Assembly: GCA_026075535.2 (NCBI GenBank)
Contig: AP026538.1
Coordinates: 12,594,337 to 12,658,336, forward strand
Direction of reading: 5' to 3'
DNA from: Tricholoma matsutake
Taxonomy: Eukaryota; Basidiomycota; Agaricomycetes; Agaricales; Tricholomataceae
Length of the DNA stretch: 64,000 nt
The translations under genes and the position numbers were made by a program. Shown in pieces: positions 34,650 through 57,881 of this stretch (position 1 is the stretch's first letter; the number at the start of each line of letters is the position of its first letter). The notes below the pieces were generated by a model. It saw only the letters and a program-made list of their open reading frames with translations. It was not told the DNA's origin and did not search any database.

Positions 34650-34656
34650 GACATTG
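34650..34656. other. Left target-site duplication GACATTG
   Basis: The same 7 bases occur at 57875-57881, immediately outside the right inverted repeat. With the next base counted they are GACATTGC and GACATTGT, so an 8-bp duplication with one mismatch is also possible, as expected for KDZ elements. Confidence 0.8.
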
Positions 34657-35063
34657 CACATAGGTAAGCTACACTGTACCAAATAATATGGTCTATCAAA
34701 CACATACAGTGTATCGAGTGATACGGGTTCGGTGGATGCTGTCGAATGCTCTCATAGTATGTATAACATGTACTAGTATCAAATGAATACACTTTTACAA
34801 TTCTTGCTTGTGATACACTATGAAGAATGTTAATAATATACAGATCAGAGATAGCGTACACAGTACTCGGCAATGGCATTGGCATCAGCATAGAAGTATG
34901 GCATCAGCATCAGGCACCACTTCGCCATAATAGTATGACCTAGTTGCATGTACTATAGTGAATTACAATGCTTGGTATAGATGTGCATAGGAGACTGTAT
35001 GGCCTAGCTATGGGCAATGATGCAATAATTCATTCTATGTAGTGCAGACCTACCAAACGGGTC
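34657..35063 (+). repeat. Left terminal inverted repeat of the KDZ element
   Basis: Begins CACATAGGTAAGCTAC and matches the reverse complement of the right end over roughly 400 bp with interruptions. Landmarks include GTATAACATGTACTAGTATC, GATACACTATGAAGAATG and GCATAGGAGACTGTATGG. The stretch near 34873-34960 differs between the ends. Confidence 0.8.
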
Positions 35064-36659
35064 TTTTACAATTCTTGCTTGTGATACACTATGAAGAATG
35101 TTAATAGACAGATCAGTGACCTATGAGATAGCATTGGACATGGTACTCGGCATCAGCAATGGCATTGGCATAGATGTGCAGTAAGAATCTAATACCATTG
35201 ATGAAATAGTCACAGCCATCAGCATCAGCATCAGCAGACACGTCGGCACAGAAATCTACATCAACATCAACATTGGCAGCAGCAGACAGACACTTTGGGG
35301 TGGAAATCTATATACCAAGAGCATCAGCAATGGACATTAGCAGCAAACCAGATGCACAATAGGTGCAGGGAGTATGAATGAACAAAATCAACAAAACAGC
35401 AGTGTTCATCCTAGCTACAATAACAATGTCGGTACTAGCTAATTGTGAGAACTGGCGGGATCAGCCATGTTGTCATCATGGGACAATGAAACCATTACAT
35501 CCAGTGGCTGGACCAAACCTGAACTGAACAGAACTGTTGGTTTGGTTCTACCGGTTCTGGTTCTTTGTGTCAGTTTGGAACTGAACTTTGGCAACCCTAA
35601 GACTGAGAGAGTATCAGGTGCTTTGTCCTCCCATTTTTTTTGCTTTTTCACAAGGCACTTTCCAGGTGAAACAGATAAGCAGGAAAGGGAAGCAGATACT
35701 GCCAAGATGGGATTGGGGCTGAGCCAAGGTGTATTTGGTGGAGGGCTACATGATGACAGGATGTTATAAAATGAGGGTACATTGAAACCTGCAGATGGAA
35801 GTGCCTCAACTGTTGGTCCATACTAAAACCTTATCAGTTAAGACTCAGGAGTTAAAAACTATAGGACTTACTACTTTGTTATAGTGCTCAATAATTCTGC
35901 ACAACATTGCCATCCTTCCCAGATCACACTTGCAATGCTCCTCATGAAGCAAAGGGTTCTTATTGGGAAGGTAGAAGTGAAAGAGGCTATTCAGACTGAA
36001 AAGTCCACACTGCCACCAATCATAGTGAAGTTCCTGGACTGTAGAAGCCAAGTCCTTCATGTCAAATTGTTCTGGCTGTACTTCAATCACATGCTTTGAT
36101 GCAGACTACTGAATGCAAGCTGTAACAGTACAGTCCTGGCCATTCTTCATTGGATCACCATACCAAACCTCTTCATTGGGAAGATCTGCAATAGCTGCTA
36201 TCCAATGGTCACCATTTATATGGAAAATACCTGCAAGTAGTGTTTTAAAGTCTGCTCCAGTCCAGTTTTTTGTTTTTTTTTGGGCATGTAACCGAGACCA
36301 AGGCTGGTGACATAATGACCCAAATAAGGTAGGACCATAACTGGACCCCTTTTAACCAGTTATTTCTGGTTAAATTGCTGTTAAATGACTGGTTATAACC
36401 AGTTACAAACAGAACCAGTTATTAACAAGTTAGGACTGGTCATGTCATTATTCTTCTAGTATTTTGTGTTCAAAATATGTCTGTTAATGATCCAAATTGT
36501 ACATACAAGGGTTGGTGTAAATATAGCAAGTTTCTGTCAAGTTATTTCAAAAACACAAACAGCACAAAATCCAACTCAGCATGCTTATTATGTTAAAGTA
36601 CCTCAACACTCATTGTATGGATCAACATAAAAAGTTCTCAACCCACTGTAGTAAGTAAT
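35064..36659. other. Left subterminal region, no gene
   Basis: 35064-35482 is subterminal sequence repeated at about 37990-38400. At 35483 similarity stops. 35490-36460 contains GGTT/AACC-rich sequence, and GTAGTGTTTTAAAG near 36238 resembles the end of the MITE at 45.51 kb. It may hold a diverged copy of that MITE family. No coding region is supported. Confidence 0.45.
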
Positions 36660-38400
36660 TTCACATGGGTAAGCTACACTGTACCAAATAATACGGTCTA
36701 TCGAACACATACAGTGTATCGAATGATATGGGTTTGGACACTGTCAAACACTCTCATAGTATGTATAACATGTACTAGTATCAAATGAATACACTTTTAC
36801 AATTATTGCTTGTGATACACTATGAAGAATGTTAATATACAGATCAGAGATACTGTTGGACACAGTACTCAGCATTGGCATTGGCATTGGCATAGATATA
36901 CAGTGATGATGCTCAACCCGGAAACTCAACCAAACCCACTAAGCTGGTCTTAGGAGATATAACACAAGTCAGAGAAAGGTTGTGAGGTAGTACTGAATAT
37001 CGCCGTGCTATCCAAAGGCCAGTAAATGTACTGTAAGATGTTGTGAAGCAGTATTAGGCCGTGCAAAGTTCTGTGAAGCTGTGCAAAGTAACGCGAAACA
37101 CTATGAAGCATTCTGAAATGATATGAAGGAGTTTAGCAGTGATGTGAAGGAGTTCAAGAATCTCTGGAATGGTTTCACAGGTTCGGGAGATGGTGACAAT
37201 AGTTGAAAGTGAGGTAAGAGACAATGACATGGTAGGTAGACAATGTGATGTGAGTTTCAAGAAACTATGTGGTGAAACAATGTAGTTTGCAGAATACTTG
37301 AGCGAGTTCAGACAAAGACTGAACTAAAACTCAAGAGTTAAACCCTTAAGTCAGATGATAGGCGATGTGAGAAGATGATTTCCTGTTTTCTCCACAGTAA
37401 ATACACCAAACTATATATGTTTTAGAGAGATAGTACTAAAAAGGTAAAAGGCCATGAGGCAAAACATGTGGTAAATGTGAGGCAGTGAACAAGGTGTCGA
37501 AATCATGAAGTAAATGAGAAAATGATAAGAAAGAAATGTGCCATATACATGATATATCAAATCTCCTTGTCTTGTGGTTCCAATAAATCATGAATACATC
37601 AAAAAATGCCTCGATGCATGCTAAGTTGCTAGCCGTTGTGTTTCTTCATGTTTGTGGTGGCAGGGACACAATGCGTTAGTGTGTGTAATGGTGGGAGCAT
37701 GTGTTTGAGGTTCAGTACAATAGGAATATGGTGGCCAAAGTGTCATTTCATTGTTTTGTATGTTCATAGGCATTTGTAAGCATTCACAAAATCGTAGGAC
37801 TTTGGGAAGGAGGTGTCCGAGTGTGATTTCTTGATTTCAGAGCTCTGCTGCCATAGTGGACCTATCAATGGCATTGGCATCAGGCTAACAGTCTTGGTAT
37901 AGATGTGCATAGGAGACTGTATGGCCTAGCTATGGGCAATGATGCAATAATTCATTCTATGTAGCGCAGACCTACCAAATGGGTCTTTTACAATTCTTGC
38001 TTGTGATACACTATGAAGAATGTTAATAGACAGATCTGTGACCTATGAGATAGCATTGGACACAGTATTTGGCATTGGCAATGGCAATGGCATAGATGTG
38101 CGATAAGAATCTAATACTGTTGATGAAATAGTCACAGCCATCGGCATCGGCATCAGCAGACACGTCGGCACAGAAATCTACATCAACATCAACATTAGTG
38201 GCAGCAGACAGACACTTTGGGCTGGAAATCTATGTATCAAGAGCATTGGCAATGGGCATTAGCAAACCAGACACACAATGGGCACAGGCAGTATGAATGA
38301 ACAAAATCAACAAAACAGCAGTGTTCATCCTAGCTAAAATAACAATGTCGGTACTAGCTAATTGTGAGAACCCCATGTTGTCATCATGGGACAATGATCT
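36660..38400 (+). repeat. Second, interrupted copy of the left TIR and subterminal region
   Basis: 36660-36902 repeats the TIR (CACATGGGTAAGCTAC start) and 37870-38400 repeats the subterminal part. Relative to the right end they should be adjacent, but about 967 bp (36903-37869) lie between them. The inserted piece begins TGATGATGCTC and ends ACCTATCA and encodes nothing recognisable. Confidence 0.7.
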
Positions 38401-39066
38401 GATTCGAATGTCTGAGAACCTGTGTTCAAATGATTTCAGATTATATTCCATCCTTTCTGTCAAGGTTGCATATGTCTTCAATGTGACATCTTGCTGTTCC
38501 AGCTTCTCAACCTCGGCCATGTAGAGATGATGACTGGCATCCTTGTATGAGGTGCCAAGGTTGTTTTGCAGGGCTTTCACTTTGGCATGGCAGCTCAACA
38601 GCTCCCTGTCTGTCAATTTCTGCAACAGGATGAACTAACAGTCATACAAATGAGGACAAGGCACTTACTGGATCAGCAGGTAGCATTAGCTGGTTGCAGG
38701 CCAATGCGTAGTAGTATGGTATATCAGTCATGTTTCCAGACTGCAAAGTCATCAGTGAGAGGATAGACGAGCCAAACAAGACATGGCATTGGCCAAGACA
38801 TGGCATTGGCCAACAGGACAACATCGGCCCAAGGATGGCATCAGGCCAAGGACAGCTAGGCTGGCAGCAACAAGACTTTGAAAAGAAGGAAATCTTACCC
38901 CCCCATGTGCCATGTGTACATTGAATTCAACCTTCTTGCAATAGGCCTCCATTGCCTGGTGGGTAGCTGGAATCATAAAATGGGGCACTAGATAATGCTG
39001 CCCATTGTCACCTCAGATAACGACATATCCATCAGGAATATAAGTGTCGGTTTGCTGATTGCTCAT
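38230..39066 (-). pseudogene. Small companion gene of the KDZ element
   Basis: From ATG 39066 the frame reads D-G-Y-V-V-I, TGA (39013-39015), G-D-N-G-Q-H-Y-L-V-P, F-M-I-P-A. An intron (GTAAGATTT..TTTGCAG) leads to a short exon, and a second intron (GTAAGTGCC..TTGCAG, near 38.62-38.67 kb) joins P-A-D-P to K-L-T-D-R-E-L-L. A helical block follows with S-Y-K-D-A-S-H-H-L-Y-M-A-E-V-E-K-L. The C-terminus merges into the subterminal repeat. It looks like a small protein that recurs beside basidiomycete KDZ transposases; its role is unknown. The TGA again stands where arginine is expected. The first intron contains a duplicated TTGGCCAATGCCATGTC. Confidence 0.55.
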
Positions 39067-39231
39067 GGTATATATAACACAGATGATAACAAGTGATACT
39101 GTTTAATCAGGACATTATTTGTTTGTATATATTGATTGTATATTGATCAACAACACGTGATTGTTGATTTTCAGTGTTTCACTCTTTTTCATCTCAACAT
39201 CAAACCCACTGCCGCAGCCGACTCATCAACC

Positions 39232-40186
39232 ATGAATGTTACATGCCAACAAGTACTCGGCCAGATCAGCGAGATCGAGCAATCCATCTGCAATGGACTT
39301 TGGGACCAAAGTATCAAGGCCGTGATGAAGGAAAGAAAATCAGCCCTTGTGAGTGGATTGGCATGCTATCAGATCAATGATGCACTTACAAATTGTAGAA
39401 AATGTTATTTGCCTGGCAAAGAGAGGTTCTCACAGAGGATGTGCAGGCTGTCTTCCGGGCTGATGCCTTTTTGTGGGGATTTGTGGTAGCATGGTCAAAG
39501 TCAGACAGGACAGGGGACCAGAAGTTTATTAAAGGTCAACTGAGGGCAATGAAGACCTTTGATGAGAAAAAGGGCATAACAGGACCTGCATCCACATTGG
39601 CTGGACCAACTGCATCGGCAATGGCAGCAGCAATGGCAGGTGGAACAGCAAGGGCAGGTGGAATGGCAATGGCCACTGGAACAGCCACTGCAGTGGGAAT
39701 GAGAATGGCACCGACCAAGAAAGCGGGAATGGCAGCAGCCAAGACAGCAGGGATGGCAGCTGCAAGGAAAGGAGGAGCAGCAGCAGCAACACCAGCAGCA
39801 ACACCAACACCAACAAGGATAGAAGCAGCACCAGCACCGGCCAAGATGCAGGCCCATCAGGATCCAGACTTCCAGCCCCAGCCCAGCAACCAATGCTGCC
39901 AGCAATCACAGTGAGACCCAGGCCACAAGAGGTGCAGAGTAGCAGGGGATCAGACGAGGATTTTGATGAGGAGACAGAGAGCAATGCTGGTGCCAATCCC
40001 AGGATGGAGTGGAAGTGGCACAATGCAGCAAGGGTGGCACGAGGAGCACCCCAGCGAGGGAGTTTGTGAATGACGCTGTGTGCACGATGTGTCAGGCTTA
40101 GGCATGAGTGTTGGGAGCAGGTGAATGGGAAAATGGCCTGCTACTTCTGTGGGAAAGGGAAAGTTTGGTGTGATCCAGAGGACGTG
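39232..40186 (+). pseudogene. KDZ companion gene, 5' part: Ala-rich linker and Cys cluster
   Basis: ATG 39232 opens exon 1; a 50-nt intron (39349-39398) joins A-L to K-M-L-F-A-W in frame. An N-terminal helical domain (about 100 aa) is followed by a low-complexity Ala/Gly/Met/Thr stretch made of GGNAT/GGCA repeats. Within it the reading frame changes: the frame used before ends at TGA 39914, while a second frame continues D-A-G-P-S-G-S-R, S-D-E-D-F-D-E and then a Cys-rich motif C-A-R-C..H-E-C..C-Y-F-C..W-C near 40.10-40.18 kb, resembling a fungal binuclear-type cluster. A TGA near 40068 precedes the Cys motif. The coding sequence stops at W-C-D-P-E-D-V where the chromovirus is inserted and resumes at 47903. 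Confidence 0.6.
40182..40186. other. 5-bp target duplication ACGTG (left)
   Basis: Identical to 47903-47907 at the other side of the LTR retrotransposon. Confidence 0.9.
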
Positions 40187-40902
40187 TGTTACAATTTTGT
40201 TATCTGGACCCGCAAGACCCGGCACCTCATTTTTCCTTTCTGACAGGACACGACTCACTTCCGATGGAGACACCCCCTGATCTGACTCCTGTCAATCGAC
40301 ATGCTGCACCACAGTATTCCATGACATCAGACTCCGTGACGTCGGACTCCTTGATGTCGGACCCTTGATATCGGATCTGTGACATCGGATGCCTCATGCT
40401 TGGCATGAGGGTTATTTGCTATTGTTCTTCGACATGCTGCGCCGCAGCACTCCATGACATCGGATGCCTTGTGCTAGGCATGAGGCTTACTGTTCTATTG
40501 TTCCTTCTATATTTACTTGACAAGGATCTCGTATTCCGATTGGATGATAGACATTCTCTGAACCATATATAAGCTACAGTAATACTGCCCGTATTCCTTA
40601 GCTTGACCTAATTCAATCAACAGTCTTAGACTCAACCAGAACACTCGACAGCTTAGGAAGCCCCTAGCTGTGATAACTCAAACTCGACAGTTGGAAAGCC
40701 TCCAACTGTGATATATGAACTGATGGTCTACTCAGAAACCCTCTGAGTACAGATAGCTGTAACAACTTGAGGAAGTACCCAAGCAAAGGCCAGAGGGCCT
40801 GATATACTAGGAAAGCCTCCTAGTGTGATACCGAGACTGTTGGAAAGCCTCCAACTGTGACAGACAAAACCAAGGCTGAGTTAAAGACCTATAGTCTTAA
40901 CA
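40187..40902 (+). repeat. 5' LTR (716 bp)
   Basis: TG..CA ends. It is about 105 bp longer than its partner because of an internal duplication around the GGCATGAGG and ATGACATCGGATGCC motifs near 40370-40480. A TATATAAGC box lies near 40566. Confidence 0.9.
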
Positions 40903-40929
40903 AAAGGTCAAGCTGATCCATAAAGTCCA

Positions 40930-41574
40930 CCTACCTAGGTGCAGACACAATGTCTTTCAGACAAAGCCCAGACAGACCTCCGACAGGAGCCTCATCATCA
41001 GGACAAACCCCGTGGTATAGATACCAGGGTTGACTAGTACAATACTCGGAACCAGCACAGAAGTGGTTCTCAAGGAGAACCAGTGACGAAGAACCCCAAT
41101 ACCTCAACGAAGAGGATTTTAGATCCCTCGATACAGAAGAAGCTCCAGAACGAGACCCATTCTCCCTATCCAACGACAACACCAACATGTCCACTGAACC
41201 CACCACACTGACCAAGGAGATTAGAATCTGAACCCCCTCTGACTTCACAGGGGACCGAATGAGAACTGCAAAGTTCTTACAAGAAGTGAAACTCTATCTG
41301 AGAGTAAACTAAAGCAAAAGAGACCCCACTCAAGATCAACCAACTCTCCTATCAGGAGAGGATCGAACACATGAAGAAAGGGTTGTGCTTTGTGTGCCAC
41401 CAGCCTGGACACAGAGCAACCGAACACAAGAAAGGGGAAAAGAGGACTGAGGACCAGCCATCCCCAAAGAATAAAGGCAAGGAAGCCTACTCAAAGATCC
41501 GAGCGATCATAGGAGAACTCGATGAAGAAGAAAGGAAGGGAGCTCTCACCGCCATTGAGGATGAGGGTTTTTAA
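40930..41574 (+). pseudogene. Chromovirus Gag remnant with large internal deletion
   Basis: An N-terminal piece (M-S-F-R-Q-S-P-D-R-P, with stops) runs to about 41310 and then passes directly into a C-terminal piece with one zinc knuckle, C-F-V-C-H-Q-P-G-H-R-A-T-E-H. The last ligand is His where CCHC knuckles have Cys. Most of the capsid region is missing, about 250-300 residues by comparison with the usual Gag length. Confidence 0.65.
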
Positions 41575-41591
41575 AGAGGTGGCCTGCCTCG

Positions 41592-44500
41592 ATGCCAGGT
41601 ACCACCGAACTCTCTGTCTGCTCTGTACTACTAGCCACTTTGAAGAATCAATCTATGCATTTAGATGTCAAAGTGCTAGGAGCAGGCAGAGGGAAAGCCA
41701 TCGAAACCAAAGCCCTACTCGACTCTGGAGTGGGAGGGATATTCATGAGTCATGAATTCATGGAGAGCAGCGGATTTGAGCTGCACCCCCTGGAGAAGGT
41801 GATCAAGGTCAAGAACGTGGACGGAACCCCAAACAAGAAAGGGGAGATTTCCCACTATGCCAGGGAACTCCTGATGATCAACGGAAGAACCTTCCCAACA
41901 ACCTTCCTCATTGCAGGACTGGGAAAGGAATCAGTCATCTTGGGCTTGCCATGGCTCAGGAGAATCAACCCAGTAATTGACTGGAGAATTGGAACCTTCC
42001 AATTCAGGACGAATGACAAGACCCATCCTGAATTCTCATATGGAAGAGGAAGAACCCTTATTGGTAGGGTACAGACCAAGAAAACCAATGATGAACACTT
42101 GTCATGGCGCCAAAGGGGAACCGAAAAGAAGAAGGACCCCCTAGACATGACAAAAGAAGAGTGACAGGCATGGTGCCGAAAGATTGTTGCCAAAGGACAA
42201 GAAAAGCTTGCCCTCAAGAAGAAGACTGCCGAGGAAGAATGAGCACAATGGAAAAAGGTGGCCACCAGAGAGCTGGAGAAACTGGCCGCCAGGAAAGAAG
42301 AAGGATGACTGGCAGTAGCCTGGATAGTTACAAAAGCAAGGGAAAAGGTAGCCCTGAAAAGCAAGAAAGAAGAGCTGGCAAAAGAAGAACACCGAGAGCT
42401 ATGCTGAAGAGTTGTCGCCAAGGCGAAACTGATGGGAGGAGTCCTCCACAAAGAACCAAGAAGAAGCAAGATGCCCCTCGAGACAAGAAAAGTGACGATC
42501 AAAGAAATCGACGATGAAGAGATCGCGATCACGACTCTTCAAGATGCAGAGCCCATAGGGCCACAAGACGAAGAAGACACTGGGAAGGAAAACCCAGCAC
42601 AGGCAAACCATGAACAGGCAATGGAACAGGCAATGGAACAACCAAAAGAGACACCCAAACTGAGGATCAAAGACGATGAGCTACTGGTCACCTACATCCA
42701 AGGAGAACCTGTCATTGGAATATTCAAACCAGCTAGGACACCACTGACAGAGGAGTATGACAAGCCAAGATACAGATATTCTCAGACGACGAAGACAATT
42801 TGTTGGATCGTAAAGGCAAGAGGATCACCGCGATATGCTTATGGACAAAATATCTGGATCAGGGCAAAAACATTGGTCTCACAACACCTGACACACAAGA
42901 AGGAAGGAGACCCCGAACAAAAGACCCTTGACGAACTACTCCCCGAACAGTACAGGGAATACCGACAGATATTTGAAAAAGAAGCATCGGAGAGATTCCC
43001 AGAATCAAGACCCTGGGATCATGCGATCAAACTGAAAATGGACTTTACGGCAAAGGATTGCAGGGTTTACCCATTGTCACCAGCAGAACAAAAGAAACTC
43101 AATGAGTTTCTTGACAAAAGCCTACAGAAGGGATACATCTGACCATCAAAATCGCCCATGGCGTCGCCATTCTTCTTCGTTGTGAAGAAGGGCTCGGATG
43201 TGCTACAACCCTGCCAAGATTACAGGTATTTGAACAATGGAATGATCAAGAACACCTACCCACTGCCACTGGTAGGAGACCTGTTGGACAAACTAAGAGG
43301 GGCAAAATGGTTTACAAAATTGGACATCCGATGGGGATATCACAACATCAGGATCAAGGATGGAGATCAATGGAAGGCAGCCTTCAAGACAAATTGGGGG
43401 CTGTTTGAACCAACGGTGATGTTCTTCAGATTATGCAACTCACCAGCGACTTTCCAGGCAATGATGAATGAGATATTCTGTGACATGATCAGAGAAGGAT
43501 GGCTCATGATTTACATGGACGACATCCTGATATTCTCCAAGGATCAGAATGAACACCAGGAAAGTACTGCAAAGACTGGCAGAAAATGACTTATACCTGA
43601 AACCAGAGAAATGCAAATTCGATGTCCACAAAGTGGAATTCTTGGGTCTGATCATCCGACCCAACGAAATTGCCATGGACAACACGAAACTGGCAGGTAT
43701 ACAGGATTGGCCAACCCTGACAAATGTAAAGGCAGTCAGATCTTTCCTGGGATTTGGAAACTTCTACAGGAAGTTTATCGGACATTTTGCGGAGACAAGC
43801 AGACCGCTTAATGAACTAACGAAGAAGAACAAAATGTTCGACTGGACAACAGAATGCGAACAGGCCTTTCAAACACTGAAAAAGAAATTCACAGAAGCAC
43901 TGGTACTACTGATGCCAGACCCAACAAAGCCATTCACAATCAAATCAGATGCCTCAAAATATGCGATGGGAGGAGTGCTGAGACAAAGGGATACAAATGG
44001 GGACTGGCATCCGTGTGGATACATATCGCATGCGCTAACACCAATGGAATGGAACTATGAGATTTATGACAAGGAGCTACTAGCGATAATATGATCGCTA
44101 GAGACATGGAGACACTACCTACTAGGTTCAGAACACCCAGTGGTAATCCTGTTGGACCACAAGAACTTGACATACTTCCGAATGGCACAGAAACTGAACA
44201 GATGACAGGCAAGGTGGAGCCTATTCCTATTGGAATTCGACTTGCAAATCGTCCATGTGCCTGGATCACAGATGGTGCAGAGCGATGCGTTGTCATGGAG
44301 AGCAGATCACGTACTGGAAGAAGATAACGATAATGAAGACGTCACGATGCTGCCAGAAACAGTATTTGTGAAATTCATTGATACCAAAATGCATGACTTA
44401 CTCGCAGGGAGTATCATGAAGGACGACCTGGTGAAGAGCACAATCGAGGCACTAAAGACCAAGGGAATGCCACCGATAAAGTCGGCATTGGAAGATTGGA

Positions 44501-46651
44501 AAATAGAGGACGGCCTTCTATTTTTCGAGACAGGTGCTATGTCCCAGACAACGGAGATCTACGGAAGAAGCTGGTGCAAAAATACCACGAAGGAGTAACC
44601 AGCAGACATCCGGGACAATGGCAGACAACTGAAATGGTTAGGAGAGACTACTGGTGGCCAGGAATGATGACATACATCAAAAACTATGTTGCTGGATGCG
44701 CAACATGCCAGCAAATGAAGGTCAACACCCACCCGACGACACCCCCTCTACAACCAATTAAATCTGAAGTGACAAGACCATTCGCAATGGTGATGACAGA
44801 TTTCATAACCGACCTACCAGAGTCCAATGGTTATGATGCACTCATGGTCGTGGTAGACCATGGGCTTATGAAGGGGGTAATTTTTATCCCTTGCAGGAGA
44901 ACTATAGATGCATTGGGAGCGGCCACCCTCTATCTAGACAATGTCTACAAACAATTTGGCCTCCCAGACAAGATCATCTTTGACAGAGATCCCAGATTTG
45001 CCTTGCAGCTGTTCCAGGAGCTAGGAAGACTGCTCGGAATCAAGCTGGCAATGAGCACAGCGTACCACCCCCAGACTGACAGGGAGACAGAACGGGTGAA
45101 CCAGGAAGTGGAAGTATACCTATGGATCTTCTGCTTGAACAACCAGGAGAATTGGAAGCACCTCCTCCCAACTGCAGAGTTCACACACAACCAGAGGATG
45201 CACTCTGTACAGAAGAACTCCCCATTCTACCTCATGATGGGCTATGAGCCCAAGGCGATCCCACTCCCCTACCTGAAGACGAACATACTGGCCATAGACA
45301 AACGAATAGTTGCACTGCAACGGGCCCGAGACAAAGTGAAGGCAACTCACAAGTTAGCCAGACAAATGATGGCAGAAAGAACAACAAGGCACTTCACCCC
45401 ATTCAAAGAAGGAGACAGAGTGTGGCTAGAAGCAAAGAACCTCAGAATGATGCACGAAACAAAGAAGCTCGCACCGAAAAGAGAAGGACCATTCTCTATC
45501 AAGAAGTAGTGTTTAAAGGTCCGGTCCTACAAACTGGAAAAAGACCGAAACCGGACTGAACTGAACCAAAGTCCGGTTTGTCAGGTGGCTATTTATAGGA
45601 CCAGTCTTTTGCAGTCCAGTTGCCAGTCTTTTGCTTTGAAAAATATCATTGAACCAATGAAAACCGATCCAAACCAGTTTCAACCGGTTTATAGGTCATG
45701 TGCACTATACCCGCTGATTCCCACACATAATGGCTTCAATTCCGCTCCCTGGACCATCAAAAATGGTTGGGAACTGAGAGAGATATGACAAAATACATTT
45801 TGATGTGAGTATTTTGATGTCATTTGAGCAGCTGTGACTGTACTGTTTATACCTTGTGCTACAAAAATGTTGGGCACAATTGGACATTATCCAAGGCAAA
45901 GGAATAACATACATAAACATCTATACCATGTGTATTTGATTCATTTAACAGCCCTAACAAGTTGTAACTACAAACTACAAACTACAACATGGAATACAAT
46001 GTACTTTTGTTTTGGTCATATCTCTGTCAGATCTTGATAAAATCTCTTAAAAGTTGGACCAGTCACCGGGAAATTACAATATCCAACTGCTTGTGTAATG
46101 GTGAGATGGTCCGGTTAATATTTGGTGAGAAATATATGGGTTATATTGGTACAACAAATTTTACAACAAAAAGTCGATTCGAACTGGTTTTTTTCAGTCC
46201 ATGGACTGATATGGACCGGTCCTATGTGGTCCTGTTGCAGTTCAGCAATATCTGGGTCAGTCTTGGACCGGTTGCAGTTGCGGTTGCCCCATTTAGACAT
46301 AAAAAACCAGACTTAACTGGACCTGTAAATGCTATCGAGAAGGTCCTGAGCCCACTCTCCTACCGACTGAAGTTGCCAGAACAGTGGAAGATACACCCTG
46401 TATTCCATGCAGCACTTCTTTCCCCTTATAAAGAAACTGAGACACATGGCCCAAACTTCCCAAAACCTCCGCCGGATCTAGTTGAAGGCGAATCGGAGTA
46501 CAAAGTGGAAGCGATCATCAGACACAAGAAGAAAGGAAGGACCACGCACTTCCTAGTGAAGTGGGTCAGATACCTGACCTCGGAGAATTTGTGGGAGCCC
46601 AAGGGGAACCTGACTAATGCCAAGAGAATCCTAGGGGCATATAAACAGTGA
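41592..46651 (+). pseudogene. Chromovirus Pol: protease, RT, RNase H, integrase, chromodomain
   Basis: Domains follow in normal order. Protease has L-L-D-S-G-V-G-G (about 41.72 kb). A Lys/Glu-rich linker with several TGA stops (42.16-42.41 kb) follows. RT has [14 protein letters not shown] and Y-M-D-D-I-L-I-F (near 43.51 kb). RNase H has [10 protein letters not shown] and D-H-K-N-L. Integrase has an H-P..C-A-T-C zinc site, then D-F-I-T-D-L-P, D-R-D-P-R-F and E-R-V-N-Q-E. A chromodomain follows (V-E-A-I-I-R-H..F-L-V-K-W-V-R-Y..W-E-P, 46.5-46.62 kb). TGA at 43140-43142, 44092-44094 and 44203-44205 replace expected arginines; frameshifts lie near 43560 and 44590. A MITE splits integrase from chromodomain. 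Confidence 0.9.
45510..46330. mobile_element. MITE of about 0.8 kb inside the chromovirus integrase
   Basis: The integrase frame breaks at F-S-I-K-K (45505) and resumes at E-K-V-L-S-P-L (46335). The two breakpoints carry CTATCAAGAAG and CTATCGAGAAG, a likely target duplication with one mismatch. The insert's ends resemble each other in inverted orientation (GTTTAAAGGTCCGGT against CATTTACAGGTCCAGT). The interior is rich in GGTCCGGT/GACCGG motifs and encodes nothing recognisable. Confidence 0.7.
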
Positions 46652-46663
46652 CGACAGCTGTTG

Positions 46664-47231: not shown

Positions 47232-47291
47232 CTAGAGAGGAGAAAGAGATTTTGATCGAAGTCAGTGACTTCAAAGATAGAGAGAGGGTGA

Positions 47292-47902
47292 TGTTACAAT
47301 TTTGTTATCTGGACCTGCAAGACCGGGCACCTCATTTTTCCTTTCTGACACAACACGACTCACTTCCAATGGAGACACCCCCTGATCTGACTCCTGTCAA
47401 TCAACATGCTGCACCACAGTATTGTGACATTGGACTCCATGACATTGGACTCCTTGACGTCAGACGCCTTGTGCTAGGCATGAGGCTTACTGTTCTATTG
47501 TTCCTTCTATATTTACTTGACAAGGATCTCATATTCCAATTGGATGATAGACATTCTCTGAACCATATATAAGCTACAGTAATACTGCCCGTATTCCTTA
47601 GCTTGACCTAATTCAATCAATGGTCTTAGACTCAACCAGAATACTCAATAGCTTAGGAAGCCCCTAGCTGTGATAACTCGAACTCGACAGTTGGAAAGCC
47701 TCCAACTGTGATATACAAACTGACAGTCTACTCAGAAACCCTCTGAGTACAGATAGCCATAACAACTTGAGGAAGTACCCAAGCAAAGGCCAGAAGGCCC
47801 GATATACTAGGAAAGCCTCCTAGTGTGATACCGAGACTGTTGGAAAGCCTCCAACTGTGACAGACAAAGCCAAGGCTGAGTTAAAGACCTATAGTCTTAA
47901 CA
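47292..47902 (+). repeat. 3' LTR (611 bp)
   Basis: Same ends and body as the 5' LTR apart from the 105-bp length difference and scattered transitions. The polypurine tract is probably the GAGAGGAGAAAG..AGAGAGAGGG stretch just upstream. Confidence 0.9.
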
Positions 47903-49393: not shown

Positions 49394-51480
49394 TCAAGGC
49401 TTAGGGCATTGTGAGCTCTCTTGAGGTATATCCAACAGAAATGGATCAATTGGGCATGGGGGATCATTTACAATGGCATTTCTGGCTGATCCAGGTGTGA
49501 TGTATCTCATGTGAATGTGTTGAGGAATGAGATATTCTGGTTCACCATCACTAGGACCATTAATTGGCTGTGGTTGAGTGACACCAACCATACAGAGGCT
49601 GTCCATTGTCATTTGATCCACTTGGACATATTGTGATTCAGTTGTATCAGAATTTGGGGTCTGTCCTGCTGTTGATATTTAGCAAGCTTCCTTGTGCTTG
49701 GGTTTGCCTTTGACAACTTTTCTGCCTCTTGATGCAGCAGGCAGTTTGGCAGTGGCAACAGCCTCCAGTTCAGTGCTGGGTTGAGGATCAGCATCAGCAT
49801 CATCATTTCTTTGGCCCCTGCAGTTTGCAGAAGGTGGTTCAGCATCAGCAATGGCCCCCAGCTCGGTGCCACTATGAGGATTGGCATTGTCATTTCTTCA
49901 GCCCCTGCATTTGGAAATGCATTGGGAAGGTGAAGGGTTATTCAAATCATTCGGATAGTGTGCAGGAGCCACACTCCTGTCCATGGCTTTGATCGCTTTG
50001 AACCGGAACACTCTTTCAGGGCCCTGCACCATTTGTTGCTGCAGAACATGGTCAAAGAAGTCTTCTATGACACTCTTGTGCATGTTCCATGGGTCTCTAA
50101 ATTTGAACCTAGCTGGGAGATATTCCAGACTGACAAATGATGATGTCCGATCTGCAATTGCTTTGAATGGGATATGGCAACTACGACCATTATTTGCTAG
50201 TTCTGCAGGAGATAAGTAACAGTTTGTGGAATAGGAAGTCAACATACTGTAATGCTGGCCAACATACTAAACCATTCTTCCAGCTTTTTTTTCTTGAATT
50301 GTGATCCTTTCCATGATGTGGGAAGGATCCTGAACTTTACACTTCCTGGTAGTCCTACCAGGAAGACCAGGATTCCTCCAGGAATATGTGGGGCAGTGTA
50401 AAGAGCTCGAAGGATCGGGAAGCCATCATTAGTCATTGTTAATCAGGTTAGTGTTGGGTTGTGTTGCATTGCCGACCTTGAAGCAAGGTGTGATGGGCAT
50501 AAAAACTTGATATAACTCATAAAGTTTTGCTTCAGTTCAGTGACTTGATCATGATATGTGTCCAGAAACAATTGTGCAGGGGTGGCTATCAGAGAGGCAA
50601 TATTTTCATGACTGGAGTTGGCATTGGCATTGGCATCGCATTGGCAGTAAATGATTTGGGGACTCATGTGTCAACAACCATCAAACCATTAGGTGCAGTA
50701 TAGGCTGTAAATGTCACAGACAACACCCCCATTTCCAGCCACTGTTGTCATGCATTCTCCACCACACGCTTAAGGAGGCATTTGTCTGCTAGACTGTGAA
50801 ATGTTCCTTATGTCCAGCAATGGCAATGGCATCGGCTTCAACTTACACTTGCTTTGTCTGCTCGGGATATCCTTCCCACATCATTTTCTCCTGTTTGACC
50901 TCAAGGATGGCTTTCTCCTCTGCATTCATGGTGTCAAAAACATGCTTAATAGCTGGCAGTCACACTTGGAACCATCCTGGTGTACTTGTGGTGGCGTCCT
51001 CAACACCTAAAAAGTTTGCGATTTGTTGGAAAACTCGGTCCTGGTACAAGCTCCAAATGACTTCCAACTGCTTTACTTTGAAGTCATTCAATTTCCATCA
51101 GAGGCCTTTGGTCATTTGCCAGTTGTTGGAAAGCCAGGTTATTAGTTCCTGGCAATGTGATCAATAATACAACCTTCACATGCTTGTGAGTTTACCTTGG
51201 CATGAATGCAACTCTCCTCCTCATCCATAGGGGCCCTGTCAATTGATGCCCAGTAGTTGAATATTGCTGGGAGGATGTCGCACTTGAGTATTTGCAATTG
51301 GCCAGCTTTCAATTCCTGCGATTGGAATGCAACTTTACAAGGCTCAATGATCTTCCACTCTTCAACCGTATATCTGCTTCCCTTCTGGTACTGTCTCAAC
51401 TGCGGGTTCTCTGATGGCTCAGGCGGCATTGGGGGACTGATGTGAAGGAAAGGATCATTCTTGTCATTGACATAAAACAT
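49394..51480 (-). pseudogene. KDZ companion gene of unknown function, minus strand
   Basis: Begins near 51480 (M-F-Y-V-N-D-K-N-D-P). It continues through blocks with E-W-K-I-I-E-P, W-L-S-N-N-W-Q-M, V-W-S/I-W-S-L-Y-Q-D-R-V-F-Q, A-I-K-H-V-F-D, then P-I-L-R-A-L-Y-T-A-P, G-I-L-V-F-L-V-G-L-P-G, then E-Y-L-P-A-R-F-K-F-R-D-P-W-N, a Gly/Asp/Ala-rich repeat zone and a final block ending at 49394. TGA at 51098-51100 and 50960-50962 interrupt the frame where arginine fits. Donor-like sites (for example GTAAGT near 50.84 kb) indicate several introns. It is divergently placed against the KDZ transposase gene, with about 145 bp between starts. I do not recognise a domain. Confidence 0.5.
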
Positions 51481-51625
51481 ATCATCGACACAAGGATCAC
51501 ACGAGGATCACACGAGGTCAATAGTACAATAGCCCCATGAATAAATGGGTGTCATTATGACTCACCCCAAATCATCATGAGCCTAACAAGAGTTTCTTAC
51601 AAGCAAAAGAGAAGATCAAAGAAGA

Positions 51626-54446
51626 ATGCCCCCCCTGCATGAGGACAATGACGATGCAGTCAATACTGTTACACATGTAGAGGTTGAGGTCAACATGAAA
51701 CATGGACCAAAAACAAAGCACATCAAGGTCCCCCTGACTTCAGTGGAAGAACCAGGTCAATCAAATTCTGTTATACAGGATAATCCTAATGTTGCTCCAG
51801 AATGGGACATGCAGGAACCTCAGGTGGCCACCAAGCCAACTCGGCCACACATCAGCATGGTTAGTTTCTGACACTGATTGCTTATGGAGCGAGGCTCATA
51901 TACAAATAATAGAGACAGCGAGACTATGTACTGGAGTTTGTTGGATGAGTAGATGAATTGCTGCAAGCATCCCTCACTTGGCAGGCATGGTCGGTTGACA
52001 AACAAGTTTGCAACCACTGTCCATTCAATAAATGGGCAATTTGGCAATGCATTGATTGTTCACTGGGAAGCATGCTTTGCTGCACATGCATGCGTGTAAC
52101 CCACAGGCAAAATCCCTTCCATCGCATTGAATGCTGGACTGGCATGCACTTCCACTGGGCTGAGCTATGGGAGGTCAGCACATACATTTTAGTCCAGCAC
52201 CAGATGGATCAGCTGATTTGCAATGCTCTGAACTTCCAAATGAAATATCTGGAGACATTTGAAGACATGAAGGATAAAGCAGAGCAACAGTCAGCCAATT
52301 GGCAGGCAAACAATCAGCAATGGCACCGGCATCGGCCCTCTTCACCTGACTCAACCTTGGACACATATAATGAGTCTCAGGCCGATGACTGGGCCGAAGA
52401 TGAGACTGGGGCCAATTCAGCATTTTTTAATCACCTTGATGCCCTCAATCAAAGAGATCCTTTGAATCCTGAACCAGGATCACTTGCCAATTTCTGTCCA
52501 GCCTGTCCTCAAGTAGGCATTAATATACTGGAAAATTGGAAGGACAATGCAAACCAGTGGGTGTCAAAATACCTTGGTGCAGTGGCATCTAAAATGATAC
52601 TATGGATTTCAGATTTGTTTTTGAACACATATTCGTGGCCGATGGCAATTTTAAAGCTGATCATGTTCAGTAGAAAAACTCCGATACTGATATATGGCTA
52701 TGGGATGGAGGTGGGATGGGCCCAAATCAGGCTGAATATGAGCTGTTTCTCTAAGCTGCCATAGAACGATTAATGGTAGGTACCTTCCCTTGGTGGTTGC
52801 CAATGCTGTTCCCAATGCCGTCCCCAAAGCCAGTCTGATTTGCATTTGGGTTTCCAGAAGGCTCCTTGCGAAAATAAATTCCTAGCTGTTGTGAATGCTT
52901 TTCTGGTGTTGAAGGCATGTGACAGGACTGGAGTAGCACCCATTGCATGTGCACGGCATGGATGTTATGTGCCCAATGCATTGGTAGACCTGTTTCATGG
53001 AGAACAGCAAAAGAATGTCAACTTTGCTTTCCTTCAAGCACCGAAGACCACCAGAGTTGACCCTCAACAGGGAGTCATGCTCATTTACAACATTGTCTGC
53101 CAGTACATTATCCACCTTTGGGAACGTATTGGTGCCCATCTTCTGGCCGGCTTGACCATTGACCAGGCCATTGGGCTTTTGCATGTTCATGGCCACAAGG
53201 ATGAATGCTTTTTTCGCTATGCTCCTTCTTTCATTCCAGGGTCCGGCATTGTAGCAGGAGAAATACTTGAGTCTCTGTGGGCATCACTGAATTCCATTTC
53301 CCCGACGATCAGAACAGCAACCTTGCCACATTGGGCAGAAATGCTTGATGATCATGCTACAGATTCAAATCACAAGAAAATGCTTGGCATGACAGTCACA
53401 CTCTGCTCAAAATCTCGGGAAGCCCTTGAGAACTCTACACAACTCAGCCAATACCATGGTGAACTAATGGCAGCATTTGGCCAACTGGCAATCAAATGAT
53501 GGGAGGATGAAGTGAGGGCAGCAGAATCCCTAAGGCTCACAGATATCAGGGTAAACGATATGTATGCCACTCACATATCAGAAGTGGCATCAGCAGCAGG
53601 GACAGGATCAGCAGCAGGGACAGGATTGGCAGCGGGGATGGCATCAGCAGTGGGAGTGGGATTGGCCTTAACTTCGGCATCAGCACTGGGTCAATCCACG
53701 GTCGAGGAGTGGATTGATTTTGCTATTCTTTTTGAACAAATGCAGTGAGTTGTACTGCCTACCACCAATCACAACCCATCATTGATTGTCACCAGGATTG
53801 AATTATGAGACAAAGTCCTCAACTTGGTAAATCACCTCACATTTCTGACATGCAAGCTGTTGAATGGGAGAGAGAAGCTCTCACATCTCACATGGTAACC
53901 TTAATGCAGTTACAAAATGCTGCCGACATTGCCGATCATGACATTGCTCCCTCATGGATCACCCATGATAATGAAGGTGAATTTGATACCCCCGGTGACC
54001 TGGATGATGACAGTGCTGTGGCATTGGGCCTGTCAGATCTCCCAGCCCACACACATGCTATTCCAGTTGAGGAGCAACAAGTATACCTCCCCTCTAATGG
54101 CAATCTTGCGGATGTAAAGATTAACCTCCACAAGATCCAGGCAAACCAACTGCTGCACCAGCTGCAGGAGCTCATTGCCAACAAATCATTTCAATATTTA
54201 CACATCATTCGAGCAGTGCCGTGAAAGGGAGTTCGCACCCAGTCACGAGCTGTTGTCCACAAGTTGGTTAACAAAATTAGCTTGCATGCCCAAATGTATA
54301 ACCATTGCCGTAGCCGAATGCTGGCACTGGATTGTGATGATGACACATTGAGTATGTTTCAGCAGTTATCCAATGATGACCTCAATGCCAGCACAGCTAT
54401 TTTGAATCCAAACGTACCTGGTTCCACCTCTGTTCGTCTGTCCTAG
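51626..54446 (+). pseudogene. KDZ (Kyakuja-Dileera-Zisupton) transposase, inactivated
   Basis: ATG 51626; introns 51860-51912 and 52557-52612 (donor GTGGGT) and another from about 52775 to 52858. An N-terminal Cys cluster (C-N-H-C..W-Q-C-I-D-C..C-C-T-C..H..P-F-H-R-I-E) is the CxC domain seen in these enzymes. The core follows: A-C-P-Q-V-G-I-N, V-A-D-G-N-F-K-A-D-H (first Asp), A-C-A-R-H-G-C-Y, E-Q-Q-K-N-V, then Y-N-I-V-C-Q-Y where the family has Y-D, H-G-H-K-D-E-C-F-F-R-Y, F-I-P-G-S-G, G-E-I-L-E-S-L-W (Glu). Stops: TGA 51946-51948, TAG 52671-52673, TAA 52752-52754, TGA 53497-53499, 53806-53808 and 54222-54224. A repeat-expanded Ala/Gly stretch lies at 53.58-53.69 kb. The C-terminal helices reach about 54446. 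The active enzyme would move elements with long TIRs and 8-bp duplications. Confidence 0.88.
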
Positions 54447-54589
54447 ATTTGGCATAATTCCCACATTCGTACTGGTCTCATGGCCGATGCAGATGCCATT
54501 GCTGATGCAGATGCCGGCTGATTCTGGGAATGTAGATATATTTTGTAGCCATCCATATTCATTGTACTAACAATTTTCATAGTCAGGTG

Positions 54590-57148
54590 AGTACATTGGC
54601 TTTCTTCATGGGCTCAAAGAAATTGATGGAGGGAGGAATTTCTACTGGTCACATATGAAATGCAGTGGACTGTGTGGTATTTCATCTATCACAGCTGACA
54701 GTGGCAGTTGGCCTCACAGTCCAAGAATACCCTTCCTGGTCTGCTAGCCTATGCTAATTGCCAGCATGCTTCATGGTATGAATTAGCATTGAGGGCTGAC
54801 AATGCATTTAGATCAATAAATGCCGATTATATCTCCCCTCTGTGACTGAAAAGGGCCACATGTATTATGTAAACATGATGTAAACATGATGTAAACACGA
54901 TTATCTTGATCACCAACCACGACCATGTCAAACAAAAGTCTCTCAATCTTCAACCCTTTTTCTTTGCAATCAGGCCCAAAAGGGCAACTCCAAATGTGGA
55001 CACAAGAGATCATTTGGTATGCGGAGTCCCCATTCCATCGAGTTTTGTTGGAGTTAGACCAGGCAAACTTTGTAAAACAATGTTGGATGCAAAAAATTCT
55101 CTATGCTGAGCTTGTATGTTGAGATCTTTCCTAAAGGAAGTAAGTATACATCACTTATGACAGATGTATGTCATGTCTTGCATCAGCATTGGCACCTCCA
55201 TTGGCCTTATGATGGATGTGCTGATCCTTCTTTGGTCCTTGGCCAACAGTCTTGCTGATGTGAATTTGGACCACCTACCCCTTGGACTCCATCCATCTCT
55301 CTTGGCCTCGTTGGATGATGGTGTTGCCAGCAACAGTCCTAGCTGTCTGGTGGATTCATATGTATGTGATTGGTGGAGCCACAATAGTGAACTGGCACTG
55401 GGGCAAATTTTTGCCAGTGACATAGCCAGCCAGCAGACAATGCTGCCGATGGCCAAGCTGACTGCCGATCTTGCATCTCTCATTGGGGATTTGTTCAATG
55501 AAGTATGCAGGATGCGGGACTTCATAGATGGCTGCGAATCATCAGCAGAGGCTGCGATGAATGCGAATGTCAGGCAAGCAGCAGGGTTCCAATGGCTTCA
55601 TGAGCTAGCCCTGCTCAAGGAGCTTCAGTCTGAACCATGTAAGTTAACAATGGCACCGGCAGCGGCAGCGGCATCAGCATCAAAAAACAACCATGGACAC
55701 ACTGGGAGATGGTCAGCTGTAAGAAGACAATTGGAACTGGTATCTGCACATGCACAGGCTGAACTTGAGTGGCTGAAGGCCCTTCCCCCAACCTCCTCTG
55801 GGGCATTGATATTACAGAGAATGAGGTTTTAGCAATCAATCAGGCAGCCAAGGGCAAGGGAAAGGCACAGCATTCTGGGTACACAGGGTCTTTACCTGAT
55901 GGCATGCAGCAAAAGAAGGAGTGGTCAAATGCACCAAGTCTCCCAACAGTTGTCTCTGCCTACAATCGACCACCCACAGTTACTAATCATGATGCTGGCT
56001 AGGGCAAGGCAGGGGTTACCCCTGGGTGTCAAATCTCATACCCTTACCCCTACCCCTGAACACCCTACCCTTAGGGGTAAGGGTATGGAAACATATAAGG
56101 GTTGCCAAAGGTATGGGAGGGTTTGTCAAGGGTACAATGGTTTGGCACAAAATCAACATATTTAGAGCAAAATTCATTTGAAAGTGTTGATAACTATTGT
56201 ATTTACTATTAATATCACATATTAATACTCTTATTAACATATGAAAGCCATTATCATGTTGGACAATCTCAAAATCTGAATTTAATTGATGAAAATCTTG
56301 AATATGAGTCTTTGTAGCTGAAAAAATCAAATGATATTCTTACATAAGCATACCCCTGGCATACCCCTGTACCCTTACTAAGGGTACAGGGGTATGCAAG
56401 GGTATGAACTTCCAAACCCCTACCCTTACCCCTCATACCCTTAGCCCAAAAACACAAGGGTATACCCCTACACCTGCCTTGCCTTAATGCTGGCCTATAT
56501 TTTTCAGATGCTGAATCCGATGTGTCCAATGCTGGGACCGCTCCTGTTGTTCCTGTCCCCGCTCCCGTTGCTTCAGTCCCCATTGCCGATGCTGATCCTC
56601 TCTCCACTGCCGATGCCAATTCCAATTCTGTCCCCATTCCCACTACCGATCCTGTCCCCGCTGCCCTTGCCGATGCTGAGGCACTCATGGTTTGGCAAGG
56701 TGAAGATGATGTAGCAAATGATGCTGATCAGCATACTGCCCTTCAGGCAGCCATGACATATGGTTCTGATTCATCATCTGCCCCTACGGGTTCCCCAACC
56801 AGCATTGATGCTGCTGACTTCTACCTCAATGATTCTACCTCTTCATCTCCACCCTCAAATCCCCTATCAGCTTTTGTCACCACATCTGATGCAGCAGATG
56901 TTTTTCTCTCATCATCAGAGACAGATTCTACTGGACCTCGGGGTGAATCCAATGCCAATGCCGATAATGCCAGTGCCAATTCTGACTTGGAGCACAATTT
57001 TAGTGATGAGTCCCCCAGCACCTCCCAGATAGAGCACCCCACTCCTTCTCGCATCACGCTGCCCATCTATATTCATGCAGACTTTGATTATGTTGATGAC
57101 ACTTGGTTGCATGGCTCTGATGATATGGACACTACAGATGATGGATGA
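54590..57148 (+). pseudogene. KDZ companion gene with acidic disordered C-terminus
   Basis: Blocks on the plus strand include L-S-I-F-N-P-F-S-L with W-T-Q-E-I-I-W (54.93-55.09 kb), and a helical block 55164-55640 with H-P-S-L-L-A-S-L and W-L-H-E-L-A-L-L-K-E-L. After a GTAAGT donor a further helix follows (A-E-L-E-W-L-K-A-L). A change of frame near 55.79 kb (splice or frameshift) leads to E-N-E-V-L-A-I-N-Q-A-A-K-G-K-G-K. The frame then meets a MITE at 56000 and continues seamlessly after it (H-D-A-G to L-Y-F-S-D-A-E-S) into a Ser/Asp/Asn-rich tail ending TGA 57148. No family is recognised. The last 600 bp are rich in GATGCC-type repeats shared with the rest of the element. Confidence 0.5.
56000..56486. 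mobile_element. hAT-like MITE with 8-bp target duplication
   Basis: ATGCTGGC is duplicated at 55992-55999 and 56487-56494. The ends are inverted repeats: TAGGGCAAGGCAGG on the left and TAAGGCAAGGCAGG read in from the right, followed by CCCTTACCCCTA-type subterminal repeats in both orientations. The 487-bp interior encodes nothing. An 8-bp duplication with a TAGGG-like tip is characteristic of hAT elements. Confidence 0.9.
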
Positions 57149-57519
57149 TGTTCATTTATTTCATTTACATATTCTATACATGAACATGTAGTAATAATTG
57201 TTGGTGCTTCTGGAACACCGAACATTTTCTGCCTGATCCCTAATCCCAGTGCCTGTGCCGTGCTCAATTCTGATGCTGATCTCTGATTTCATGAAGGTCT
57301 GTATTATGTGTCTGCTGCTGCTGATGTCAGTAAATTTTTAATTTCTGCCAGTGCCAGTGCCGACTCATTTCATAGGTCTGCATACTACAACAAATGAATG
57401 ATTGCTAATTGAGGCATTTATCATACATGTCACTATATAACCTTTGGCATCAGGAAGTTTCCTTAGGCAGCATCAGCAGCATTGACCAACACCAATCAGG
57501 TTGGCAAGCTGATCCAGTT
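57149..57519. other. Right subterminal region
   Basis: No gene is seen. Contains the element-specific GATGCTGAT and AGTGCCAGTGCC repeats. Confidence 0.5.
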
Positions 57520-57874
57520 TGGTAGGTCTGCACTACATAGAAAATCATTGTATCATTGCCCATAGCTAGGCCATACAGTTTCCTATGCACATCTATACCA
57601 AGACTGTTAGCCTGATGCCGATGCTGTATATCTATGCCAATGCCGATGCCGTTGCTGTTGCTGGGTACCATGTCCAACGCTATCTCTGATCTGTATATTA
57701 ACATTCTTCATAGTGTATCACAAGCAAGAATTGTAAAAGTGTATTCATTTGATACTAGTACATGTTATACATACTATGAGAGCATTTGACGGTGTCCACC
57801 AAATTCGTATCATTTGATACACTGTATGTGTTTGATAGACCGTATTATTTGGTACATTGTAGCTTACCTATCTG
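57520..57874 (-). repeat. Right terminal inverted repeat of the KDZ element
   Basis: Reverse complement begins CAGATAGGTAAGCTAC and tracks the left end with scattered, mostly transition, differences. The last 13 bases of identity are ATAGGTAAGCTAC. Confidence 0.85.
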
Positions 57875-57881
57875 GACATTG
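57875..57881. other. Right target-site duplication GACATTG
   Basis: Pairs with 34650-34656. Placing the left coding end directly onto this copy keeps the Plavaka reading frame open. Confidence 0.8.

What the first reader, a model, noticed from the sequence alone, without database searches (positions are those of the whole stretch)
34650..57881. A 23.2-kb multigene KDZ transposon split a Plavaka transposase gene
Seen: Plavaka coding blocks end at 34656 and resume at 57875 in the order expected of one protein; GACATTG stands at both breakpoints; inverted repeats of roughly 400 bp begin at both edges; a KDZ transposase lies inside. Known: KDZ elements have long TIRs, 8-bp duplications and several genes. 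Inferred: one insertion event explains everything, with Plavaka older than the KDZ copy. A large cargo-bearing element defined to the base, caught inside another transposase gene, deserves description as a family.
Basis: partly seen in the sequence, partly recalled or inferred. Interest (0 to 1): 0.88.

Follow-up and report, generated by a model that had tools for sequence, protein, structure and literature searches.

The report
Nested KDZ transposon inside dead transposase
In what appears to be the matsutake mushroom genome, a large jumping gene of the KDZ family really did land inside another, already broken, jumping gene, but much of its 23-kilobase length comes from still other jumping genes piled into it rather than from useful cargo, so it is a well-documented but largely ordinary case.

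Summary
A 23,218-bp insert (34657-57874) with inverted ends (405/361 bp) and a 7-bp duplication (GACATTG) interrupts a transposase sequence; three unoccupied relatives in the same genome run straight through the joint. The assembly matches Tricholoma matsutake (161,040,721 bp, 13 sequences). The insert belongs to a large family: 482 termini, and 23 of 30 end pairs examined carry exact 7-bp duplications. Parts of the interpretation fail. (1) The target matches CACTA-type tnp2 (PF02992), not Pfam Plavaka (PF18759), and was most likely already a pseudogene. (2) Duplications are 7 bp, not 8. (3) It is not one event: a second left end at 36662 is a further KDZ insertion, inside a Ulp1-bearing repeat; a 7.7-kb Ty3 retrotransposon, a 0.96-kb repeat and two MITE-like pieces are nested too. 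(4) No cargo was recognised: compact relatives are about 11-15 kb, and this copy's transposase lacks 549 bp. The locus also lies in a segment of at least 30 kb duplicated, mostly about 98% identical, near the end of the same chromosome. It is a new family of a known kind. The 7-bp duplication and CA..TG ends recall Kyakuja, but the long inverted repeats do not fit the published description.

The parts
34650..34656 (.). 7-bp target-site duplication GACATTG, left copy
57875..57881 (.). 7-bp target-site duplication GACATTG, right copy
34657..35061 (+). left terminal inverted repeat (gapped extent 405 bp; first 179 bp 93% without gaps)
57514..57874 (-). right terminal inverted repeat (gapped extent 361 bp)
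33640..34656 (+). left part of the interrupted tnp2/CACTA-type transposase pseudogene (extent as searched)
57882..58116 (+). right part of the interrupted transposase pseudogene; homology stops about here at another repeat
34657..35489 (+). outer KDZ left-terminal segment (833 bp), homologous to the first 716-860 bases of other copies
35490..36661 (-). fragment of a different repeat carrying a Ulp1/C48 protease remnant (36109-36351 minus, below the Pfam cut-off); the full stretch was found only here and in the duplicate
36662..36903 (+). second (inner) KDZ left end, inserted into the Ulp1-bearing repeat; presumed duplication GTAATTT at 36655-36661
36904..37867 (.). high-copy 0.96-kb repeat nested in the inner left end
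37893..40186 (+). KDZ core, left part
40187..47902 (+). nested Ty3-type LTR retrotransposon with chromodomain (7,716 bp; LTRs 40187-40902 and 47292-47902, 580 of 611 aligned bases identical; 5-bp duplication ACGTG at 40182-40186 and 47903-47907)
49901..50670 (-). core gene of unknown function, present in other KDZ copies and with relatives among database proteins; interrupted here by a 79-bp insertion
50330..50408 (.). 79-bp MITE-like insertion with 8-bp duplication GAAGGATC
51587..54221 (+). KDZ transposase coding region, defective; KDZ domain in 52780-53496; 549 bp of the CxC2-containing exon missing at 52445/52446
55161..57145 (+). right-hand core open frames (the last one serine-rich), interrupted by a MITE
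56000..56486 (.). 487-bp MITE-like insertion (TAGGGCAAGG..CCTTGCCTTA) with 8-bp duplication ATGCTGGC, hAT-like by these features

Best explanation
A KDZ cut-and-paste DNA transposon inserted, making a 7-bp duplication, into a decayed tnp2/CACTA-type transposase copy. Shown: ends, duplication, unoccupied relatives, family. The site then became a layered nest. A Ulp1-bearing repeat sits next to the outer left end, and a second KDZ copy of the same family inserted into that repeat (shown by the uninterrupted relatives of the repeat). The most likely way to get the present structure (outer left end, repeat, inner left end, one right end, outer duplication intact) is recombination between the two collinear KDZ copies that removed the outer copy's body; this step is inferred. 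A Ty3 retrotransposon, a 0.96-kb repeat and two MITE-like pieces inserted inside. Later a segment of at least 30 kb, including the nest, was duplicated near the end of the same chromosome. In intact copies the transposase (CxC2 zinc cluster plus KDZ catalytic domain) would recognise both inverted ends and excise and integrate with a 7-bp stagger (inferred from known transposons); this copy's transposase is broken, so it could move only if another copy supplied the enzyme.
For: TIRs and duplication; three unoccupied relatives continuous across the joint; 482 termini at up to 3 mismatches against 0 for the reversed-pattern control; 36 inward left/right pairings against 5 outward within 60 kb among 214 listed ends; exact 7-bp duplication in 23 of 30 pairs examined (21 once copies of one insertion are counted once), 6/7 in 2, 5/7 in 1, none in 4; layered map against other copies; 6 of 6 other copies of the Ulp1-side repeat run on past the point where the inner left end begins; LTR pair with ACGTG duplication; duplicated segment; divergence outside CpG: duplicate 0.5-0.7%, LTR pair 3.1%, window copy against other KDZ copies 3.5-4.9%, target against its empty C5 relative 3.9%.
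Against: The inner copy's right-hand duplication is missing, so the recombination step rests on inference. The junction at 35489/35490 between KDZ sequence and half of another repeat is unexplained. The composite could have formed elsewhere and moved as one unit. Four of the 30 pairs show no duplication.
Confidence: 0.85

Rival explanations
1. One simple insertion of a single 23-kb cargo-bearing KDZ element.
For: Outer ends and 7-bp duplication match; other pairs of up to 31 kb also have exact duplications.
Against: Inner left end inside a Ulp1-bearing repeat; LTR retrotransposon with its own duplication; 0.96-kb repeat; six copies of 10.9-15.4 kb read in full show no match to the retrotransposon, the Ulp1 stretch or the full 0.96-kb repeat.
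Confidence: 0.04
2. Composite transposition: a solitary outer left end and a neighbouring complete KDZ copy were mobilised together by transposase acting on the distal left end and the shared right end, and the composite then landed in the tnp2 copy.
For: The outer ends share a perfect 7-bp duplication although the left side holds two KDZ left ends with a foreign repeat between them.
Against: The full Ulp1 stretch of the composite was found only here and in the duplicated segment, whose flanks are the same, so no independent second landing is known.
Confidence: 0.12
3. Assembly artefact.
For: Repeat-rich, heterozygous genome (PMC10211490, passages); a near-identical segment lies on the same chromosome.
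Against: The two copies differ by 0.5-0.7% outside CpG, the outer, retrotransposon and MITE junctions carry duplications, and the T2T assembly used HiFi reads (PMC10211490, passages).
Confidence: 0.03

Closest known systems
Kyakuja (KDZ) transposons of Agaricomycetes (Kojima 2025, PMC12730594; parts 1-4 of 7 and passages read)
   Same: KDZ transposase, 7-bp duplications, 5'-CA..TG-3' termini, mushroom host
   Different: Kojima reports no TIRs for the two Kyakuja families of Laccaria bicolor; this family has TIRs of about 180-400 bp. No TET/JBP match appeared in the frames scanned.
Cryptococcus neoformans KDZ1, KDZ2, KDZ3 (PMC12810828, passages)
   Same: KDZ transposase with a cysteine cluster, long TIRs (139-241 bp), about 9-11 kb
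   Different: 8-bp (KDZ1) or 4-8-bp (KDZ2, KDZ3) duplications and CxC1; here 7 bp and CxC2
Zisupton/Dileera (Kojima 2025, PMC12730594)
   Same: same superfamily of transposase
   Different: 8-bp duplications reported; here 7 bp, exact in 23 of 30 pairs
Starship giant transposons (search listing only)
   Same: large fungal DNA transposons
   Different: Starships are Pezizomycotina elements classified by a tyrosine recombinase (search listing); here a KDZ transposase and TIRs, and much of the length comes from nested elements

Membership tests
KDZ superfamily | KDZ transposase domain (PF18758) | tested here: met
   114.4 bits in the window copy (cut-off 26.6); 117.3 bits in a relative
KDZ superfamily | CxC-type cysteine cluster preceding the transposase | tested here: met
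   CxC2 PF18803, 62.1 bits, in relative C3:6211344; the window copy lacks 549 bp of that exon and its own frame gave no match
Kyakuja lineage | 7-bp target-site duplication | tested here: met
   23 of 30 pairs exact, 2 at 6/7, 1 at 5/7, 4 without
Kyakuja lineage | 5'-CA..TG-3' termini | tested here: met
   30 of 30 pairs printed; the ends were found by patterns that begin CA or by similarity to this element, so this is partly by construction
Kyakuja lineage | no terminal inverted repeats (as reported for the Laccaria families) | tested here: not met
   TIRs of 405/361 bp
Kyakuja lineage | transposase groups with Kyakuja in a tree | not testable with these tools
   I had no labelled Kyakuja/Zisupton/Dileera reference proteins; no tree was built
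Zisupton / Dileera | 8-bp target-site duplication | tested here: not met
   match over 8 positions is 0-4 of 8 in all 30 pairs
Plavaka (interrupted gene) | match to PF18759 | tested here: not met
   three frames of uninterrupted relatives (363, 233 and 202 aa) gave no match at E <= 0.05; the listed part of a genome search for PF18759 includes none of the sites, but not all its matches are listed
CACTA/EnSpm tnp2 (interrupted gene) | match to PF02992 Transposase_21 | tested here: met
   31.4 bits, cut-off 28.6, in the C9 relative; 25.3 bits, below cut-off, in the C5 relative; the two window pieces alone gave no Pfam match
Starship | tyrosine-recombinase captain gene | tested here: inconclusive
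   none of the 19 distinct insert or relative frames scanned gave such a match, but not every frame was scanned

The most novel reading that the evidence does not exclude
KDZ transposase in this genome can pair a distal left end with a neighbour's right end, so that closely spaced copies together with the foreign repeats between them are mobilised as ever larger composite elements: a route by which basidiomycete transposons could grow and move unrelated DNA without Starship-type machinery.
Probability: 0.12. Interest if true: 0.55.

Novelty: new member of a known kind. Interest (0 to 1): 0.4.

Why it matters
It defines, with both ends and the duplication, a high-copy KDZ family in a commercially important mushroom genome of which 25.4% was left as unclassified repeats (PMC10211490). 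It adds a 7-bp-duplication KDZ family that has long inverted repeats, which the published Kyakuja description lacks. It is also a caution: a large 'cargo' transposon in a repeat-rich genome can be a stack of nested transposons. The copies show a strong C-to-T excess at CpG (935 of 1,808 changes), which makes the family useful for studying methylation-linked decay.

Tried and rejected
Rejected: an 8-bp duplication (7 bp fits). A Ulp1 protease as KDZ cargo: of the elements mapped only the segmental duplicate has that stretch, and parts of it lie at other genome places as a separate repeat. TET/JBP cargo: no match in the 19 distinct frames scanned with Pfam; absence from the whole element is not proven. 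Recurrent hits on one target: the copy at C1:19.22 Mb has the same target, but its flanks match on both sides, so it is a duplicated segment and not a second hit. A cargo element with foreign contents: C4:723087-738456 seemed to share only its ends, but that search covered one strand only; one search shows the same core lying in the opposite direction, so the left/right labels of the ends are not perfect.

Led nowhere: structure prediction of the minus-strand core protein was of low confidence (mean pLDDT 57.3), so no fold search was made. dN/dS between copies (medians 0.45-0.66) is confounded by CpG decay and was not used as evidence of constraint.

Not examined: 5 of the 36 left/right pairings (each shares an end with a nearer partner or spans more than 56 kb); the 31 rows are 30 pairs plus the inner left end. 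Pairing used 214 listed ends only, of 482 or more. Twelve elements besides the window's were read in full; would have completed one more and given eight further.
Full report
Source. The window is G000:C1:12594337-12658336 of an assembly of 161,040,721 bases in 13 contigs. The published telomere-to-telomere assembly of Tricholoma matsutake has exactly that total and 13 sequences (PMC10211490 and PMC10627285, passages). I take the window to be matsutake.

Observation. The two edges are inverted copies of each other: 93% over 179 nt without gaps, extending with gaps over 405 and 361 bases (score 240 against at most 16 in 100 shuffles). GACATTG abuts both edges. The left end reads CACATAGG... and the right end, in reverse complement, CAGATAGG..., so the element has CA..TG termini. 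Joining the flanks with one copy of GACATTG gives a sequence that aligns without a break over positions 1-840 or 1-835 to three loci without the insert, at 92%, 82.5% and 82.4%; of the other two loci aligned, one (C13) crosses the joint by only about 20 bases and one is the duplicated segment, which still carries the insert. The insertion is therefore real and defined to the base.

The target. Uninterrupted relatives match PF02992 (Transposase_21, tnp2), above its cut-off in the C9 copy (31.4 against 28.6 bits) and below it in the C5 copy (25.3); none of three frames matched PF18759 Plavaka. The window pieces alone gave no Pfam match. The window copy shares two in-frame TGA codons with its empty C5 relative (alignment); at one the C9 relative reads arginine, at the other the C9 relative also has a stop. 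The target was therefore most likely a pseudogene before the KDZ element arrived. On the right the homology ends near 58116 at a repeat found at many places, often as two inverted arms, beyond which other sequence follows.

The family. A pattern for the first 32 bases finds 227 forward and 255 reverse termini at up to 3 mismatches, with 0 for the reversed control. Left and right ends can usually be told apart, though one element, C4:723087, has its core lying the other way round between its ends. Among 214 listed ends, left and right face inward within 60 kb in 36 pairings and outward in 5. Of 30 pairs whose flanks I read, 23 have an exact 7-bp duplication, 2 have 6/7, 1 has 5/7 and 4 have none. 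Two sets of exact pairs share their flanks and are copies of one insertion each: this one with C1:19.22 Mb, and C1:9.79 with C1:11.77 Mb, leaving 21 independent exact cases; a third set, C1:1.81 with C10:10.01 Mb, shares flanks but has no duplication. The 30 pairs span 7.0-41.2 kb. A genome search for the KDZ domain scored 150 of 831 candidates and gave 165 matches, many of them far from the listed ends, so other KDZ families are probably present too.

What the 23 kb is made of. Mapping against other copies shows a shared core with, in the window copy, additions and losses. 34657-35489 is a left end. 35490-36661 is part of a different repeat with a Ulp1/C48 remnant (PF02902, 19.1 bits, below its 20.7 cut-off). 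A second left end starts at 36662. In 6 of 6 other copies of the Ulp1-side repeat the sequence runs on past that point, so the inner left end is a separate KDZ insertion, presumably with the duplication GTAATTT; its right-hand partner is gone. 36904-37867 is a high-copy 0.96-kb repeat (40 matches scored of 1,473 candidates, the window and its duplicate among them). 40187-47902 is a Ty3-type retrotransposon with a chromodomain, LTRs 580 of 611 aligned bases identical, and an ACGTG duplication. Two MITE-like pieces with 8-bp duplications sit at 50330-50408 and 56000-56486. The transposase lacks 549 bp compared with copy C3:6211344 and has stops in aligned exons, so this copy is probably not autonomous.

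Core genes. The compact copy C3:6211344 (13.3 kb) encodes a CxC2 (62.1 bits) and KDZ (117.3 bits) transposase, probably with introns; a minus-strand gene without Pfam match; and low-complexity frames on either side. The transposase frame has 475 relatives at E <= 0.001, of which 120 are listed, including named proteins of T. matsutake and Flammula alnicola. The minus-strand protein has 15. Two pairs of relatives of the two proteins report the same longest-contig length (12,988 and 552,232), a hint, not a proof, that the genes travel together elsewhere. No typical host cargo gene was recognised in the frames scanned.

Order of events. Outside CpG, divergence is 0.5-0.7% between the window and its duplicate, 3.1% between the LTRs, 3.5-4.9% between the window copy and ten other KDZ copies aligned (duplicate excepted), and 3.9% between the target and its C5 relative. 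So the retrotransposon arrived before the segmental duplication, and the KDZ and retrotransposon insertions are of broadly similar age. The duplicated segment reaches at least from C1:19212823 to C1:19242815, on a contig that ends at 19249005. Changes among 12 KDZ copies are dominated by C-to-T at CpG: 935 of 1,808.

How it works. By analogy with known DDE transposons (established knowledge, not tested here), the KDZ transposase would bind both inverted ends, excise the element and join it to a 7-bp staggered cut. What is shown is the footprint (ends, duplication, unoccupied relatives, copies). The removal of the outer copy's body by recombination with the inner copy is inferred. A rival, mobilisation of the composite as one unit, cannot be excluded.

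Comparison. Kojima 2025 (PMC12730594; parts 1-4 of 7 read, plus passages) gives 8-bp duplications for Zisupton and for the Dileera family described there, and 7-bp duplications, CA..TG termini and no TIRs for two Kyakuja families of Laccaria bicolor. The present family fits Kyakuja in duplication and termini but has long TIRs; without a tree the lineage stays open. KDZ elements with long TIRs are known from Cryptococcus (PMC12810828, passages), and KDZ preceded by CxC2 from Pleurotus (PMC7641404, passages). A search for papers holding both 'Tricholoma' and 'KDZ' found 0 (open-licence library only). The original KDZ/Plavaka description by Iyer and colleagues is known to me from recall and through these papers. 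Verdict: a real, precisely bounded insertion and a new high-copy family of a known kind, but not a single event, not a Plavaka target by Pfam, and not a recognisable cargo element.

Noticed in passing
window 33640-63999 and C1:19212823-19242815: A segment of at least 30 kb containing the whole nest is duplicated in inverted orientation near the end of the same chromosome, mostly about 98% identical.
   Followed up: partly
C1:9787126-9814399 with C1:11771526-11799208; C1:1809187-1839810 with C10:10008429-10049643: Two further sets of KDZ elements share the same 12-base flanks, suggesting more duplicated segments that contain KDZ elements.
   Followed up: no
C4:723087-738456 (L020, L021): A KDZ element with an exact 7-bp duplication whose core lies the opposite way round between its left-type and right-type ends; end swapping or conversion is a guess.
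   Followed up: partly
12 KDZ copies, segments homologous to window 50409-55422: C-to-T changes at CpG make up 935 of 1,808 differences from the majority base, about 3 changes per CpG site against 0.05-0.24 in other contexts.
   Followed up: partly
58116-58290: About 175 bp matching one arm of a repeat found at many places, often as two inverted arms; it cuts off the transposase pseudogene.
   Followed up: partly
17482-19068, 19993-20898, 21065-21196: Tandem-repeat arrays with periods of about 55, 61 and 22 bp.
   Followed up: no
12882-13436: Inverted repeat of 238-nt arms, 93% complementary, 79 nt apart.
   Followed up: no
27857-30659: Second Ty3-type retrotransposon remnant with gag, zinc knuckle and reverse transcriptase.
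   Followed up: no
35489/35490: KDZ left-end sequence is joined directly to the inner half of an unrelated repeat; how this junction arose is unexplained.
   Followed up: partly
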